Positions 31,171-36,614 of a stretch of DNA of 36,803 nt are shown here, in pieces. A program made the position numbers and the translations under genes. This DNA comes from Candidatus Rokuibacteriota bacterium. GTDB taxonomy: Bacteria; Methylomirabilota; Methylomirabilia; Rokubacteriales; CSP1-6. The notes below the pieces were generated by a model that saw nothing but the letters and a program-made list of their open reading frames with translations, searched no databases and was not told where the DNA came from. The stretch lies in contig QHSL01000012.1 of assembly GCA_003220435.1 (NCBI GenBank), positions 1 through 36,803 on the forward strand, written 5' to 3'. The first letter of the stretch is position 1, and each line of letters starts with the position of its first letter.

Positions 31171-31334
31171 CAGTGTGTCGGGCGGGGGTGGGTGCGGAGG
31201 GGTCGCAGCGACCCGTTCCCGCCGAGCGGCGGCGGGAGAAACGCGCCTGGATGGAGCCCAGCCGCGACGGGGCAGCGCACGCGTGCCGCGTGGTCGTCGC
31301 GACCCCTCCGCACCCACCCCCGCCTGACACACAC
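31171..31334. repeat. 164-bp element with 36-bp near-perfect terminal inverted repeats
   Basis: 31171-31206 and the reverse complement of 31299-31334 agree at 33 of 36 positions. The 92-base interior includes CCCGCCG-AGCGG-CGGCGGG. There is no gene inside it. It could be a miniature inverted-repeat element or a structured RNA; only one copy was noticed in the window. Confidence 0.75.
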
Positions 31335-31372: not shown

Positions 31373-33013
31373 GTGACCGATCCGGTGACGGTGTCCGTGC
31401 TGACTCATCGCCTGGAGGCGATCGTCCAGGAGATGGGCGAGGCGATGCTGCGCACGGCGTACTCGCAGATCCTCAATTCGAGCCGCGACTTCTCCACCGC
31501 GCTCTGCGACGCCCAGGCGCGGCTGATCGCGCAGGCCGAGCACGTGCCGATCCACGTGGGGGCGATCCCGTGGGCGGTCGAATCCGTGCGCGACGCCTTC
31601 AAAGACCGCGTCAGGCCGGGCGACGTGTACTTGCTGAACGATCCCTACCACGGCAACAACCACCTCCCGGATCTCACCGCATTCGTGCCGGTGTTCGTGG
31701 GCGGCGAGGTCGTCTTCTGGTCGGTCAACCGCGCGCATCAGAGCGACATCGGCGGCTCGACTCACGGCGCCTACAATCCGGGCGCCACCGAGATCTGGCA
31801 GGAAGGCCTCCGGATCACGCCGCTCAAGCTGTACGACGCGGGCGAGCTGCGCGACGACGTGCTTCGCATGATCACGACCAACGTGCGTCATCCCCACGAC
31901 TTCATGGGCGACCTCAGAGCGATGATCGGCTCGGCGCGCATCGGCGAGCGACGGCTGCAGGCCCTGATCGACGAGTACGGCGCCGCGACGGTGGTGGCGG
32001 CGGTGGACGAGATCCTCGACAGCGCCGAGCGCCAAGCGCGGGCGTGCGTCGCCGGGTGGCGCGACGGCGTGTACCACGGCGAGTCGATCCTCGACGACGA
32101 CGGGCACGGCTTCACCGACATCTGGCTCCGCGCCACCGTGACCAAGAAGGGCAGCGCGCTCACGATCGACCTCGGGGACTGCCACCCGCAGGTGCACGGC
32201 TTCATCAACTCCTCGTTCCCCAACACGATGTCGGCGGTGCACATGGCGTTCGCGTATCTCATCGATCCACGAACGCCGAAGAACTCGGGGACGTTCCGGC
32301 CCGTCCGGGTGATCGCCAAGCAGGGGACGATCGTGTGGCCCTATCCGCCGGCGCCGGTGACGCTGGCCACCAACCACTGCGCCCAGGAGATCGCCGAAGC
32401 GATCATCAAGGCGCTGGCGCCGGCGTGCCCCGATCGGGCGATCGCCGGGTGGGGACGACGCTTCCGCGTCGCGATCAAGGGAACGAACCCGCGCACCGGC
32501 AAGCCGTTCATCTGGCACATGTTCCACGCGCGCCCCGGCGGCGGCGCGACCGCCGTCGGCGACGGCTGGGAGACCGCCGGTGAGGGACAGGCGGCCGGCG
32601 GGATCAAGTTCGGCAGCGTGGAGGTCGCGGAAGCGCGATTTCCGCTGACGTTCGAGCACCACGAGTTCCGCGCCGACTCGGCCGGCGACGGCATGCATCG
32701 CGGCGGTGTCGGCGCTGAGCTGCGACTGCGCGTCGACGTGCAGGAGCCCGCGGTCGCCAACACCGCCGGCGACGGCGTGCGCCACCCGCCGTACGGCCTG
32801 CTCGGCGGCAAGGCGGGCCGGCCGCACCGCTACCGCCTCCGTTCACGCGGCCGGCCCGATCGCGTCTTGAAGACGAAAGAGGTCGGGATTCCGGTGCGCC
32901 CCGGCGACCTGTTCCTGGTCGAGTCGTCCGGTGGCGGGGGCTACGGCCCACCGGCGAAGCGGTCGCGTGCCGCGCGGGCGCTCGACCGCGCCGGCGGCTT
33001 CGTGCGCCGCTAG
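31373..33013 (+). CDS. hyuB: hydantoinase B / oxoprolinase family protein
   Basis: A 546-residue HyuB-family subunit. The start V-L-T-H-R-L-E-A-I-V-Q-E-M-G-E-A-M, the central A-H-Q-S-D-I-G-G-S and D-P-Y-H-G-N-N-H-L-P-D motifs, and the glycine-rich end S-S-G-G-G-G-Y-G-P-P are characteristic. The partner HyuA (ATP-dependent subunit) is normally adjacent but is missing on both sides. The gene may therefore be orphaned or use a distant partner; the inverted-repeat element lies where hyuA would be expected. GTG 31373 has only a weak ribosome site. The stop shares CTAG with the converging gene. Confidence 0.9.
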   Translation: MTDPVTVSVLTHRLEAIVQEMGEAMLRTAYSQILNSSRDFSTALCDAQARLIAQAEHVPIHVGAIPWAVESVRDAFKDRVRPGDVYLLNDPYHGNNHLPDLTAFVPVFVGGEVVFWSVNRAHQSDIGGSTHGAYNPGATEIWQEGLRITPLKLYDAGELRDDVLRMITTNVRHPHDFMGDLRAMIGSARIGERRLQALIDEYGAATVVAAVDEILDSAERQARACVAGWRDGVYHGESILDDDGHGFTDIWLRATVTKKGSALTIDLGDCHPQVHGFINSSFPNTMSAVHMAFAYLIDPRTPKNSGTFRPVRVIAKQGTIVWPYPPAPVTLATNHCAQEIAEAIIKALAPACPDRAIAGWGRRFRVAIKGTNPRTGKPFIWHMFHARPGGGATAVGDGWETAGEGQAAGGIKFGSVEVAEARFPLTFEHHEFRADSAGDGMHRGGVGAELRLRVDVQEPAVANTAGDGVRHPPYGLLGGKAGRPHRYRLRSRGRPDRVLKTKEVGIPVRPGDLFLVESSGGGGYGPPAKRSRAARALDRAGGFVRR

Positions 33014-33222
33014 CTCGTCTCGCTCACCTGTTCATGGCCGCGCCTCGCGCGGTCTCCGACGATCCGGCGGCCGAGGCCGATCAGCGCCAGGCCCAGCGTG
33101 ACGCGCCACGGCCGGCGCGGCGGACGCAGCGCCCGGAGCCACATCTCGCGCGCCATCCTCGCGCGTGCGTCGGCGAGACGCTCTCGGGCCAGCCACTCGA
33201 CCGAGTAGACGTTCATGTCCAT
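33010..33222 (-). CDS. small basic protein, last gene of the sigma cassette
   Basis: A 70-residue, arginine-rich protein with one hydrophobic stretch (W-R-V-T-L-G-L-A-L-I-G-L-G). No family is recognised. ATG 33222 has GAGGAG 8 nt upstream; ATG 33216 overlaps the stop of the upstream gene (ATGA), so either start is possible. It is probably coupled to the 134-residue membrane protein and shares its promoter. Confidence 0.6.
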   Translation of the reverse strand: MDMNVYSVEWLARERLADARARMAREMWLRALRPPRRPWRVTLGLALIGLGRRIVGDRARRGHEQVSETS

Positions 33223-33617
33223 GACACCGACTCCTCTCCCGCCGCGCGCGCCGCGACCGCGGCGCGCTCGTGCCACGGCGCGAATTTCTGACGAGGGCTC
33301 AGTACGATCTCGAAGCGGCCCGGTCGCGTTCCTTCGTGGGCGTCGAAGACGCCGTGGGCGGCGCGAACCACTCGCGTCACCGTGTCGGAGTTGTCGAGCT
33401 CGACCGGGACGAAGACCTGCCAGCGGCCGCCGAGCCGGTGACGGACGACGGGCACGACGACCGCGCCCAGCTCGGCGTCGATCGCGTCGGTGACCTCGAT
33501 CTGCCGCGCGACGACCGCCAGCGCCCGACGCTGGAGCCGGTCTGAGAGCAGCAGCAGCCCCACGATGAACACGGACGGCAGCAGCAGCACGATCGCTCCG
33601 GTGAACACTGCCTGCAT
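33213..33617 (-). CDS. single-span membrane protein under putative ECF promoter
   Basis: A 134-residue protein. One N-terminal helix (about residues 4-26, IVLLLPSVFIVGLLLLS) is followed by a soluble domain with QIEVTDAIDAELGAVVVPVV and RWQVFVPVELDNS. No family is recognised. AAGGAGG lies 5 nt before the ATG. A copy of the bipartite element found before the sigma gene lies 41-68 nt upstream, so this is a likely output gene of the sigma factor. Confidence 0.75.
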   Translation of the reverse strand: MQAVFTGAIVLLLPSVFIVGLLLLSDRLQRRALAVVARQIEVTDAIDAELGAVVVPVVRHRLGGRWQVFVPVELDNSDTVTRVVRAAHGVFDAHEGTRPGRFEIVLSPRQKFAPWHERAAVAARAAGEESVSWT

Positions 33618-33657: not shown

Positions 33658-33685
33658 GACACCGCGGAGCGGCCGACGTGAAACG
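33658..33685 (-). promoter_or_regulatory. putative ECF promoter, copy 2
   Basis: On the minus strand, CGTTTCACGTC, 10 nt, then CGGTGTC. Both blocks and the spacing are identical to those at 35198-35225. It lies in the 77-nt gap between the alkyltransferase stop and the membrane-protein start. Confidence 0.7.
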
Positions 33686-33694
33686 CGGGGCGAG

Positions 33695-34663
33695 TTACGC
33701 CGAGAGCGGGTGGAGATCCGGCCGGCAGGCGGAGCAGGGCGCCAGGCCGGCGGACTCGGCGCGCTCGCGCGAGGCGAACAGCGTGAGATCGGCGAGCGTG
33801 CGCGAAGCGAGCGAGCCGCAGATCGGCAGGCAGTACTCGACCTCGTGGCGGTCGCGCACGTACATCGCGTCGCGCGCCACGCGGCGATCGCGGTGCGCGG
33901 TGAGCGTCGGCACGCCCTCCACGCCCAGCAGCTGCATCTTGAGCGAGAGCTTGTCGCCCGCGTAGCCGGTCAGCGAGCCCGAGCTTCCGATGACGCGATG
34001 GCAGGGCACCACGATCGGAAGCGGGTTCCAGCGGAGCGCCTGCGCGACCGCGCGAACGGCCGAGCGATTGCCGACGTCGCTGGCGATACCCGCGTACGAG
34101 GCCACCGCGCCGTAGGGGATCGCCACCGTCGCCTTCATCACCGCGCGCTGGAAGTCGCTGCGCGCCAGCCGGAGATCGAGCGGCCACTCGAGGCGCGTGC
34201 GCTTGCCGTGCAGGTAATCGAGCAGCTCGCGGTAGAGCGCCTCGACCTCGACGCCGTCCTCCTGGGCCTCGACGCCCCCGACCTGCGAGAGCCGCGAGGA
34301 CTTGAAGCCGGTGCGCTCGCCCAGGTACTCGACCAGCGATACGCCGTGCTCCGACCGCGCGATGAGGATGTTGCCGAGCGGCGAGGGGAACACGCCGTAC
34401 ATCATCAAGCGCGACCTCAGATCCGCCAGCCGAGACTCCAGCGTCTCGCGAGCCCGTACCGCGCCCTCCCCATCGGCCGGCGAGCGCCGGAGCGCGCCCA
34501 CCACGCCGTCGATCTCGCGGTAACGCTGGAAGTCGCCGCGGCACGCTGCGCAGAAGCCGATATGATCCTCGACGCGCCCGCGCACCGCGCCCTCCGCGTC
34601 TCCGGTCGCGACCGCGACCAGGTCGACCTCGATCTTGAGACACGCCTGCGGCTTCACCTTCAT
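33695..34663 (-). CDS. anti-sigma-type zinc motif + O6-alkylguanine-DNA alkyltransferase + Ada-type zinc domain fusion
   Basis: A 322-residue protein with three parts. Residues 1-60 resemble a zinc-associated anti-sigma domain, with H34-I-G-F-C38-A-A-C41 (HX3CX2C). Residues 87-250 are a full DNA alkyltransferase: the M-Y-G-V-F-P-S-P-L-G start, the helix-turn-helix V-A-S-Y-A-G-I-A-S-D-V-G-N-R-S-A, and the acceptor Cys221 in V-V-P-C-H-R-V-I-G. Residues 260-322 match the Ada methylphosphotriester domain, C278-L-P-I-C282 and C310-S-A-C313-R-P-D, with 27 residues between the pairs (26 in E. coli Ada). The AraC-type DNA-binding domain of Ada is absent and the order is reversed. The ATG overlaps the sigma stop (ATGA). 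Damage repair by self-methylation is known for the domains; release of sigma on methylation is inferred. Confidence 0.88.
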   Translation of the reverse strand: MKVKPQACLKIEVDLVAVATGDAEGAVRGRVEDHIGFCAACRGDFQRYREIDGVVGALRRSPADGEGAVRARETLESRLADLRSRLMMYGVFPSPLGNILIARSEHGVSLVEYLGERTGFKSSRLSQVGGVEAQEDGVEVEALYRELLDYLHGKRTRLEWPLDLRLARSDFQRAVMKATVAIPYGAVASYAGIASDVGNRSAVRAVAQALRWNPLPIVVPCHRVIGSSGSLTGYAGDKLSLKMQLLGVEGVPTLTAHRDRRVARDAMYVRDRHEVEYCLPICGSLASRTLADLTLFASRERAESAGLAPCSACRPDLHPLSA

Positions 34664-35190
34664 CGTGATGGCTCCATCTGGGGAAGTTGGTGGCCGTTGA
34701 GGCTCACCCGGATCTTGCGGAGGGCCTGGAAGACGTGGGCACGGGCGCTCTCCGCGGAGCAGTCGAGGCTTCGCCCGATCGTCTCGTAGTCGAGGTCGTG
34801 CATCTTTCTCAGCGTGAATGCCACCCGTTGTTTCAACGGAAGCCCGCGGACGGTGGTCTCCAGCAGGCCCCGTGCTTCGGTGAACAGCGCCTCGGCCTCC
34901 GGCCCATCAGGGTCGGTGTCGCGCTGCTCCACCGCCGCGAAGGCGTAGGCGACGCGGCGGCGCTTCTCGGAGCGGAAGTGGTTCCGCGTGAGGTTCGTGG
35001 CGATCGCGAAGAGCCACGCGCGGACGTTGGCCTCCGGCGTCAGGGTGCGGTAGGCGCGGTACGCCCGCAGGAAGGTCTCCTGCGACAGATCCTCGGCCTC
35101 GCTCGTGCGTGAGGTGACGCGCCGGAGATATCGGAAGATCTCGGCGTGGTGCGCGGTCACGATCGTCTCGAACGGTTGCGCGCCCATCAT
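34660..35190 (-). CDS. ECF-type RNA polymerase sigma factor
   Basis: A 176-residue ECF sigma factor. Region 2 is at about residues 13-78 (I-F-R-Y-L-R-R-V, then E-A-E-D-L-S-Q-E-T-F-L-R-A-Y-R, N-V-R-A-W-L-F-A-I-A-T-N). Region 4 is at about 117-163 (L-P-L-K-Q-R-V-A-F, then L-D-Y-E-T-I-G-R-S-L-D-C-S-A-E-S-A-R). The frame is open to GTG 35202, but that codon lies inside the putative -10 box, so ATG 35190 (or 35187) is preferred and the mRNA may be leaderless; no ribosome site is visible. It overlaps the alkyltransferase-type anti-sigma gene by 4 nt, the usual sigma/anti-sigma order. It is divergent from phnX. Confidence 0.92.
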   Translation of the reverse strand: MMGAQPFETIVTAHHAEIFRYLRRVTSRTSEAEDLSQETFLRAYRAYRTLTPEANVRAWLFAIATNLTRNHFRSEKRRRVAYAFAAVEQRDTDPDGPEAEALFTEARGLLETTVRGLPLKQRVAFTLRKMHDLDYETIGRSLDCSAESARAHVFQALRKIRVSLNGHQLPQMEPSR

Positions 35191-35197
35191 GCGTGAA

Positions 35198-35236
35198 GAC
35201 ACCGCACGGGCCCAGACGTGAAACGACCGTGAAACG
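35198..35236 (-). promoter_or_regulatory. putative autoregulated ECF promoter with tandem TTTCAC repeats
   Basis: On the minus strand, CGTTTCACGTC-N10-CGGTGTC occupies 35225-35198. A second CGTTTCAC lies 11 bases further upstream (35236-35229). A TTTCAC-type -35 and a GTGTC-type -10 about 15 nt apart resemble ECF promoters in layout. Confidence 0.7.
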
Positions 35237-35285: not shown

Positions 35286-36116
35286 ATGACCTACGCATAT
35301 CGACGGATCTACCGGGGCCCGATCCAGGCCGCGCTGCTCGACTGGGCGGGGACGACAATGGACTTCGGCTGCATGGCGCCGGCGGTGGTGTTCGTCAAGG
35401 TATTCGAACGCGCCGGGGTGCCCATCAGCATGGAAGAGGCGCGGGCGCCCATGGGCGCCCACAAGCGCGTGCACATCCAGAAGATCACCGAGCTCGACGG
35501 GGTCAGGGCGCGCTGGGCGGCCAAGCACGGGCGGCCACCGGCCGGGAAGGACGTCGATCGGATGTTCGCCGACTTCGTCCCGCTGCAGCTCGACTGTCTG
35601 TCCGAGTACTCCGAGCTGATTCCCGGAACGCTCGACGTCGTGCAGGCACTCCGCGGGCGCGGCGTGAAGATCGGCTCCACCACCGGTTACTTGAGAGAGA
35701 TGATGGAGATCAATCTCCGGGACGCGAAGAAGCAGGGCTACGAGCCCGACTCGACGGTGTGCGCGTCGGACGTTCCGGCCGGTCGCCCGTATCCGTTCAT
35801 GTGCCTGCAGAACGTCATCAACCTCCAGGTGTCGCCCGTGGAGGCGTGCGTCAAGATCGACGACACGGTCCCTGGGATCGAGGAGGGGCTCAGCGCCGGC
35901 ATGTGGACGATCGGCCTCGCGATCAGTGGCAACGAGGTCGGCCTGCCGCTCGTGGAGTGGCGCGCGCTCGGGAGCGCCGAGCAGGCGAGCCGGCGGAGCC
36001 GCGCCTACGAGCGAATGCGGATGGCCGGCGCGCACTACGTCGTCGACACGATCGCCGACGTGCTTCCGTGCTTCGACGACGTTGCGGCGCGGCTGGCGCG
36101 TGGTGAGAAGCCCTAG
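35286..36116 (+). CDS. phnX: phosphonoacetaldehyde hydrolase
   Basis: A 276-residue HAD-superfamily phosphonatase. The nucleophile Asp19 is in L-L-D-W-A-G-T-T. The Schiff-base Lys60 is in M-G-A-H-K-R-V-H, the feature that separates phosphonatase from other HAD enzymes. S-T-T-G-Y and I-D-D-T-V-P-G-I-E-E-G complete the site. It splits phosphonoacetaldehyde to acetaldehyde and phosphate in 2-aminoethylphosphonate use. The partner transaminase PhnW is not in the window. AGGAG 7 nt before the ATG supports the start. Confidence 0.95.
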   Translation: MTYAYRRIYRGPIQAALLDWAGTTMDFGCMAPAVVFVKVFERAGVPISMEEARAPMGAHKRVHIQKITELDGVRARWAAKHGRPPAGKDVDRMFADFVPLQLDCLSEYSELIPGTLDVVQALRGRGVKIGSTTGYLREMMEINLRDAKKQGYEPDSTVCASDVPAGRPYPFMCLQNVINLQVSPVEACVKIDDTVPGIEEGLSAGMWTIGLAISGNEVGLPLVEWRALGSAEQASRRSRAYERMRMAGAHYVVDTIADVLPCFDDVAARLARGEKP

Positions 36117-36131
36117 AGCGAGCGTAGGGGT

Positions 36132-36180
36132 GCGCGCTGCAGGCCGTCGCGAGGCTGGGGCCCCGCCGGCCGAGGCACGC
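36132..36180 (+). repeat. GC-rich intergenic palindromic repeat, short form, copy 4
   Basis: Shares GCGCTGCAGGCCG, GGCTGGGG and CCGCCGGCCGAGGC with the reverse complement of 36522-36568. The two form an inverted pair around the oxidoreductase remnant. Confidence 0.75.
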
Positions 36181-36188
36181 CTTCAAAC

Positions 36189-36480
36189 ATGATCGACACG
36201 GCCGACGTCGTCGTAGTGGGGGGTGGGGTCAACGGGACCAGCATCGCGTACGCGCTGGCGGCGCGCGGGGTCCGCGTCGTCCTGTGCGAGAAGGGCGCCG
36301 TGGCCAGCGGTGCCTCGGGCCGCTCGAGCGCGTTGGTGCGCATGCACTACACGAACGAATGGGATGCGCGGCTGGCGTTCGCGAGCTTCCCCGTTTTCCA
36401 GCGCTGGGCCGAGGTGATGGGCGGCCCGTCGGTGTTCACCCGTACGGGGTTCGTCAACGTCGTCGCGCCGCCGTGCCCGC
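36189..36480 (+). pseudogene. truncated FAD-dependent oxidoreductase (DAO family)
   Basis: The first 97 or so residues of a DAO-type flavoprotein. The dinucleotide-binding start A-D-V-V-V-V-G-G-G-V-N-G is intact, followed by V-L-C-E-K, A-S-G-A-S-G-R-S-S-A-L-V-R and F-T-R-T-G-F-V-N-V-V-A-P. Similarity then stops abruptly near 36475, where about 280 further residues would be expected. The reading frame itself stays open through the repeat into the PPOX gene. Confidence 0.78.
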
Positions 36481-36483
36481 TGA

Positions 36484-36512
36484 TTGACTTGATCGCGCCA
36501 GCCGTCTACCTT
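36484..36512 (+). promoter_or_regulatory. candidate sigma-70 promoter for PPOX gene
   Basis: TTGACT (36484-36489), 17 nt, TACCTT (36507-36512). It lies just past the break in the oxidoreductase remnant and upstream of repeat copy 5. Confidence 0.45.
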
Positions 36513-36521
36513 TTTGGAAAC

Positions 36522-36568
36522 CGCGCCTCGGCCGGCGGGTCCCCAGCCCCGCGGCGGCCTGCAGCGCG
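36522..36568 (-). repeat. GC-rich intergenic palindromic repeat, short form, copy 5
   Basis: The reverse complement closely matches 36132-36180. It sits in the presumed leader of the PPOX gene, close to the oxidoreductase breakpoint. Confidence 0.75.
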
Positions 36569-36614
36569 GACGGCGTTTGGAACAGCCAGAGAGCGCGTCG
36601 TCCAGGAGGATGCA

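What the first reader, a model, noticed from the sequence alone, without database searches (positions are those of the whole stretch)
33695..35190. ECF sigma factor coupled to a repair protein that appears to be its own anti-sigma factor
The gene after the ECF sigma factor, overlapping by 4 nt, is where an anti-sigma gene normally lies. Its product has an N-terminal HX3CX2C zinc motif (H34, C38, C41), a full O6-alkylguanine-DNA alkyltransferase (acceptor C221) and a C-terminal Ada-type zinc domain (C278, C282, C310, C313), but no AraC DNA-binding domain. Inference: methylation of the phosphotriester-sensing or alkylguanine-accepting cysteine changes the fused anti-sigma domain and frees sigma. 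That would give an adaptive response wired through sigma release rather than Ada-type activation. I know of no characterised example.
Basis: partly seen in the sequence, partly recalled or inferred. Interest (0 to 1): 0.93.

Follow-up and report, generated by a model that had tools for sequence, protein, structure and literature searches.

The report
Anti-sigma factor fused to alkylation-repair enzyme
In a lineage of uncultured soil bacteria (Rokubacteria) a gene-switch protein (an ECF sigma factor) is encoded together with what looks like its own inhibitor, and that inhibitor is fused to a one-shot DNA-repair enzyme, so each repair event could in principle release one switch and turn on the damage response, a wiring that nobody appears to have tested.

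Summary
The partner protein is ZAS anti-sigma domain + complete O6-alkylguanine alkyltransferase (MGMT) + Ada-type zinc domain. Its profile finds the anti-sigma factors DdvA, RsiW, RslA and ChrR, and its predicted fold matches RslA and RsiW. Sigma and partner overlap by 4 nt almost everywhere. A promoter (TTTCAC-N14-GGTGTY) precedes sigma in essentially every relative and, with 74 sites against 0 reversed-control sites in the order, defines a small regulon: sigma operon, adjacent membrane gene, DUF2652, DinB/DUF1706. The same genome holds a second sigma + MGMT-Ada_Zn module without ZAS, and sigma-linked MGMTs recur in Chloroflexota and Actinomycetota. Sigma-MGMT adjacency is on record (ECF122, described as having no anti-sigma, mechanism unknown). 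Fusion of a recognisable anti-sigma domain to MGMT and Ada_Zn was not found in the literature available here. Alkylation-triggered sigma release is inferred, not shown.

The parts
34660..35190 (-). ECF sigma factor (sigma-70 regions 2 and 4), 176 aa from ATG 35190; the longer GTG-started ORF reaches 35202
   Evidence: Pfam Sigma70_r2 1.8e-17 and Sigma70_r4_2 1.7e-10; 27 aligned orthologues
33695..34663 (-). 322-aa anti-sigma / MGMT / Ada_Zn fusion protein, overlapping sigma by 4 nt (ATGA)
34409..34663 (-). residues 1-85: ZAS-type anti-sigma domain; ligands C8, H34, C38, C41; helices 6-19, 25-37, 39-60, 65-85
33908..34408 (-). residues 86-252: O6-alkylguanine-DNA alkyltransferase, acceptor C221 in VPCHR
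33716..33895 (-). residues 257-316: Ada-type zinc domain, C278, C282, C310, C313
   Evidence: Pfam PF02805 above cut-off; N-Ada 1adn at 6.9e-4 with the family profile
35198..35223 (-). conserved promoter TTTCAC-N14-GGTGTC of the sigma operon; -10 ends 7 nt before ATG 35190, so the transcript is probably nearly leaderless
33658..33683 (-). second promoter of the same type, 11 nt after the fusion gene's stop, in front of a small membrane-protein gene
33213..33617 (-). 134-aa predicted membrane protein of unknown family, conserved target gene (24 of 91 sites examined)

Best explanation
The gene pair is a cytoplasmic ECF sigma / anti-sigma switch in which the anti-sigma factor is also a suicide DNA-repair protein. 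In undamaged cells the N-terminal ZAS domain holds the sigma factor; the 4-nt overlap keeps the two near 1:1. When the MGMT domain takes an alkyl group from O6-alkylguanine onto C221 (and possibly the Ada_Zn domain takes one from a phosphotriester), the protein is irreversibly changed and lets sigma go, through rearrangement or turnover of the alkylated protein. Free sigma transcribes TTTCAC-N14-GGTGTY promoters: its own operon, a membrane gene, DUF2652 and DinB-family genes. Fresh unalkylated protein both repairs more DNA and recaptures sigma, so the response ends when lesions run out. Shown here by computation: domain make-up, invariance, synteny, promoter and predicted regulon. Inferred: sigma binding, that this sigma reads that promoter, identity of the sensing cysteine, release on alkylation.
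For: ZAS domain: only C8, H34, C38, C41 and two Leu invariant across three phyla; zf-HC2 in 31/34 members; the family profile's PDB hits are led by DdvA, RsiW, RslA and ChrR anti-sigma factors, with one other protein among them, all at weak E-values of 0.009-0.08; AF2 model pLDDT 87.6 with four N-terminal helices, VIA-align Z 6.7 to RslA and 5.7 to RsiW, the best matches outside MGMT. Linkage: sigma adjacent in every orthologue with sequence there; overlap 4 nt in 27 of 29 pairs measured; 40 of 41 ZAS-bearing MGMTs have sigma next door, the exception at a contig end. Catalytic residues invariant. Promoter: 74 sites vs 0 reversed-control in the order, 0 sites and 3 controls in the rest of the class; conserved also in two Binatia-type loci. 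Targets: 30 sigma, 24 membrane gene, 18 DUF2652, 5 DinB/DUF1706, 2 ECF, 12 unclassified of 91 sites. Second module in the same genome with its own promoter.
Against: No binding or induction data exist for any member. None of the classic alkylation genes (alkA, alkB, aidB) was seen in the regulon. The Ada_Zn domain of the window family has lost the basic stretch after the second Cys that E. coli N-Ada uses for DNA (comparison from memory). A sigma-partner complex could not be modelled. ZAS zinc sites of this spacing in other proteins sense oxidants, so alkylation need not be the trigger. Profile and fold matches to anti-sigma factors are individually weak; the case rests on their agreement.
Confidence: 0.66

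Rival explanations
1. The ZAS zinc site itself is the sensor (oxidants, electrophiles, or direct alkylation of the zinc thiolates, as in RsrA), and MGMT and Ada_Zn are attached only so that repair capacity is made together with the regulator.
For: Ligand set and spacing C-x25-H-x3-C-x2-C are those of redox-sensing ZAS proteins (RsrA from memory). Published data: 72% of soluble class I anti-sigma factors carry the zinc motif and such proteins are often linked to redox sensing.
Against: Sigma-linked MGMTs of Anaerolineae, Actinobacteria and the type II paralogue have no zinc motif at the N-terminus yet keep the PCHR cysteine. A mere co-expressed enzyme would not need fusion, and ZAS-MGMT fusions turn up in two separate MGMT clusters.
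Confidence: 0.2
2. The Ada_Zn domain (C278), not MGMT, is the switch: methyl transfer from phosphotriesters frees sigma, as C38 methylation activates Ada.
For: All four Cys invariant in 30 orthologues and in the type II family; C38 and C321 of Ada are the methylated residues (PMC4437013).
Against: Sigma-linked relatives without Ada_Zn exist (L056, L049, L051, L062, L094, L112).
Confidence: 0.15
3. The fusion protein is a sigma co-activator or a DNA-tethering factor: the alkylated protein, still bound to sigma, brings it to promoters instead of releasing it.
For: Ada works by becoming an activator that contacts RNA polymerase; MGMT and Ada_Zn domains both bind DNA in known proteins.
Against: The ZAS proteins it resembles (RslA, RsiW, ChrR) are known as inhibitors of their sigma factors; no AraC domain.
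Confidence: 0.07
4. The neighbourhood is an ordinary operon: an MGMT gene controlled by an unrelated ECF sigma, with a decayed zinc-finger remnant at its N-terminus.
For: Adjacent genes are often just co-regulated.
Against: Zinc ligands are the most conserved positions of the domain across phyla; 40 of 41 ZAS-MGMTs are sigma-linked.
Confidence: 0.04

Closest known systems
ECF122 sigma factors with 6-O-methylguanine DNA methyltransferase neighbours (ECF classification, as cited in PMC8999054)
   Same: ECF sigma gene beside an MGMT gene
   Different: ECF122 (representative from Cellulomonas) is listed as lacking an anti-sigma and as unknown mechanism; the window partner has a recognisable ZAS domain and an Ada_Zn domain. 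Group membership of the window sigma could not be tested
ChrR / RsrA / RslA-type ZAS anti-sigma factors
   Same: N-terminal zinc anti-sigma domain, gene overlapping its ECF sigma, a further module at the C-terminus in ChrR
   Different: The C-terminal module is a suicide repair enzyme plus Ada_Zn
E. coli Ada
   Same: MGMT and Ada_Zn on one chain, stoichiometric methyl acceptor expected to regulate its own gene
   Different: Order reversed (MGMT before Ada_Zn), no AraC domain, output through a sigma factor with its own promoter type
Bacillus subtilis AdaA/AdaB (from memory)
   Same: Alkylation-controlled repair operon
   Different: AdaA is an AraC activator; this genome has a separate AdaA-like protein besides the sigma modules

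Membership tests
Class I ZAS anti-sigma factor | C...H-x3-C-x2-C zinc motif in the N-terminal domain | tested here: met
   invariant in 34 sequences from three phyla
Class I ZAS anti-sigma factor | three-helix bundle plus fourth helix | tested here: met
   helices 6-19, 25-37, 39-60, 65-85; RslA Z 6.7, RsiW Z 5.7
Class I ZAS anti-sigma factor | gene directly after its ECF sigma | tested here: met
Class I ZAS anti-sigma factor | binds and inhibits the sigma factor | not testable with these tools
O6-alkylguanine-DNA alkyltransferase | PCHR acceptor site and conserved helix/Tyr/Glu positions | tested here: met
   C221, Y190, R204, N213, E249 invariant; MGMT structures Z up to 16.8
O6-alkylguanine-DNA alkyltransferase | alkyl-transfer activity | not testable with these tools
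   needs an enzyme assay
Ada N-terminal (Ada_Zn) domain | four zinc cysteines C-x3-C ... C-x2-C | tested here: met
Ada N-terminal (Ada_Zn) domain | methylphosphotriester acceptor activity | not testable with these tools
   needs an enzyme assay
Ada transcriptional activator | AraC-type DNA-binding domain | tested here: not met
   no such domain at E<=10
Ada regulon | alkA/alkB/aidB under control | tested here: inconclusive
   none recognised among 91 sites examined, but 12 are unclassified
ECF122 | MGMT gene in the neighbourhood | tested here: met
ECF122 | sigma sequence belongs to the group | not tested
   ECF group models are not held here

The most novel reading that the evidence does not exclude
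A general alkylation-response class in which suicide DNA repair is counted directly by sigma release: every alkyl group accepted by an MGMT-anti-sigma fusion frees one sigma factor. It appears at least as a ZAS form (Rokubacteria, Binatia) and as reduced, zinc-free forms in Actinomycetota and Chloroflexota, and would explain the unknown regulation of ECF122.
Probability: 0.5. Interest if true: 0.9.

Novelty: new variant of a known kind. Interest (0 to 1): 0.8.

Why it matters
Bacterial alkylation responses are understood almost only through Ada-type activators. A sigma factor held by its own repair enzyme would be a second logic, with a built-in stoichiometric lesion counter and automatic shut-off. 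It gives a concrete hypothesis for the ECF122 group, whose control is listed as unknown. MGMT reacts with O6-benzylguanine and is the SNAP-tag scaffold, so the switch would be easy to test and possibly to reuse as an alkylguanine-controlled sigma switch.

Tried and rejected
Kinship searches centred on loci failed until handles were assigned. Mirror-tree correlations (sigma vs ASD 0.43, sigma vs MGMT 0.62) add nothing beyond shared ancestry. The careful MGMT tree did not finish; the quick tree is used. The second fold job went to the type II paralogue: its N-terminus has two helices at low confidence (pLDDT 51-73 over residues 1-40), so its anti-sigma role is undecided. Rejected: chance zinc motif; lone MGMT operon member. 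Literature: ten searches found only the ECF122 remark; the primary ECF classification paper is not held.

Full report
WHAT IS THERE. On the minus strand an ECF sigma gene (34660-35190 from ATG, or 35202 from GTG) overlaps by 4 nt the gene for a 322-aa protein (33695-34663). That protein carries Methyltransf_1N, DNA_binding_1 and Ada_Zn_binding, all above Pfam's cut-offs, and no AraC domain. The genome is a 5.4-Mb, 147-contig assembly; named relatives of the protein are Candidatus Rokubacteria.

CONSERVATION. A search of 148 relatives gave 30 sequences (the window protein included) that were read in full. C8, H34, C38, C41, C221, C278, C282, C310 and C313 are invariant. Wherever the upstream sequence exists the sigma gene is there, 27 of 29 pairs overlapping by 4 nt. 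Extending to other phyla, Binatia (L044-L046) keep the whole architecture and sigma linkage, and a Sphaerobacteraceae bin (L056) has ZAS-MGMT without Ada_Zn. In the N-terminal domain of these 34 proteins only C8, H34, C38, C41, L75 and L79 are invariant.

THE N-TERMINAL DOMAIN IS AN ANTI-SIGMA DOMAIN. 31 of 34 members match zf-HC2 at E<=0.1 (best 1.2e-7; the window member itself only 0.06). The profile's best PDB matches are DdvA (0.009), RsiW (0.016), a sensory-box protein (0.024), RslA (0.04) and ChrR (0.08); each is weak alone, but four of these five proteins are anti-sigma factors. The AlphaFold2 model (mean pLDDT 87.6) has helices 6-19, 25-37, 39-60 and 65-85, and outside the MGMT rows the best structural matches are RslA (Z 6.7, 56 residues) and RsiW (Z 5.7, 58 residues); the next, unrelated rows score 5.2. 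These Z values are modest for a helical bundle; they are trusted because sequence, ligands and gene order agree.

THE OTHER DOMAINS. MGMT matches solved alkyltransferases over residues 85-255 (Z to 16.8) and keeps its active-site residues. The Ada_Zn domain matches N-Ada at 6.9e-4 with the family profile. In the own genome three PF01035 proteins exist: the window protein, the type II paralogue and an alkyltransferase-like protein with Trp in place of the acceptor Cys. Both acceptor-Cys MGMTs are therefore sigma-linked. A third Ada_Zn protein (C62, 243 aa) looks like an AraC-type AdaA by eye.

PROMOTER AND REGULON. Upstream of sigma every Rokubacterial orthologue has TTTCAC-N14-GGKGTY or a near variant: L034 has GGCGTC and L010 TTTCCC; two Binatia-type loci have it too. 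In the own genome there are four sites and no reversed-control site. In 59 relatives there are 74 sites (stricter pattern), all in the order that carries the system, against 3 control hits, all outside it. Of 91 distinct sites examined, 30 precede sigma, 24 a small membrane gene directly downstream of the fusion gene, 18 a DUF2652 gene, 5 DinB_2/DUF1706 genes, 2 another ECF sigma, and 12 are unclassified. In the window the second site is 33658-33683. DUF1706 is the ClbS/DfsB family (from memory: ClbS protects DNA from the alkylating genotoxin colibactin), which would fit an alkylation response. That is suggestive only.

A SECOND MODULE AND WIDER SPREAD. The own genome has another ECF sigma directly followed by a 235-aa MGMT-Ada_Zn protein without ZAS (L002/L185). 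It is conserved in about 24-28 relatives and has its own promoter, TTCCACCC-N14-18-CGTATA (28 sites vs 2 controls). Sigma directly upstream of an MGMT with a short N-terminal extension is also common in Chloroflexota and Actinomycetota, and Nonomuraea has sigma + MGMT-Ada_Zn. Among 169 distinct MGMTs collected (a sample biased towards the query), 40 of 41 with ZAS and 65 of 70 with Ada_Zn have sigma next door, against 20 of 97 with neither. A quick tree puts the ZAS-MGMT-Ada_Zn type in one cluster (99% SH-aLRT) and nearly all other sigma-linked forms in another, so sigma linkage may have arisen more than once; many forks are weak.

MECHANISM. The anti-sigma role is well supported. The trigger is inferred. 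C221 is favoured over C278 because sigma-linked proteins without Ada_Zn exist, whereas the PCHR cysteine is present in every sigma-linked MGMT read here; note that the tree sample required PCH. MGMT is used once per lesion, and alkylated human MGMT is destabilised (from memory), giving a natural irreversible release step.

LITERATURE. A 2022 review lists 6-O-methylguanine DNA methyltransferases as conserved neighbours of ECF122 and puts that group among those without a cognate anti-sigma and with unknown mechanism (PMC8999054). A study of class I anti-sigma domains does not mention methyltransferase or Ada (PMC7406223). A review of the Ada response does not mention anti-sigma factors (PMC4437013). 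The library holds only open papers, so absence is weak evidence.

VERDICT. Real, conserved and functionally coherent; anti-sigma identity about 0.93, alkylation gating about 0.66. New variant of a known kind.

Noticed in passing
L002/L185 (own genome, contig 124): A second ECF sigma + MGMT-Ada_Zn pair without zinc motif at the N-terminus, with a different autoregulatory promoter (TTCCACCC-N14-18-CGTATA).
   Followed up: partly
L147-L178 (e.g. L157, L166): DUF2652 genes are the commonest distant target; their DISGFT...EGDAVFA pattern resembles class III nucleotide cyclases (by eye).
   Followed up: no
L155 and L158: Another ECF sigma gene follows a promoter of this type in two genomes, suggesting a sigma cascade.
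   Followed up: no
window 33010-33222 (-): Small gene after the membrane gene; a similar one follows in L164, so the downstream operon may be longer.
   Followed up: no
window 36130-36197 and 36504-36571: 68-nt inverted repeat (82%), and a second pair at 31173-31332. The oxidoreductase-like reading frame from 36190 runs through the arm at 36504-36571 into a PPOX-like protein, so it may be truncated or misjoined (by eye).
   Followed up: partly
L046 (CAMBFS010000032.1): A contig labelled Klebsiella pneumoniae carries a Binatia-like sigma/ZAS-MGMT-Ada_Zn pair: most probably a mislabelled or contaminated bin.
   Followed up: no
window 35286-36116 (+): HAD hydrolase resembling phosphonoacetaldehyde hydrolase (by eye), divergent from the sigma gene; not seen in the upstream stretches of the other relatives that were read.
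   Followed up: no
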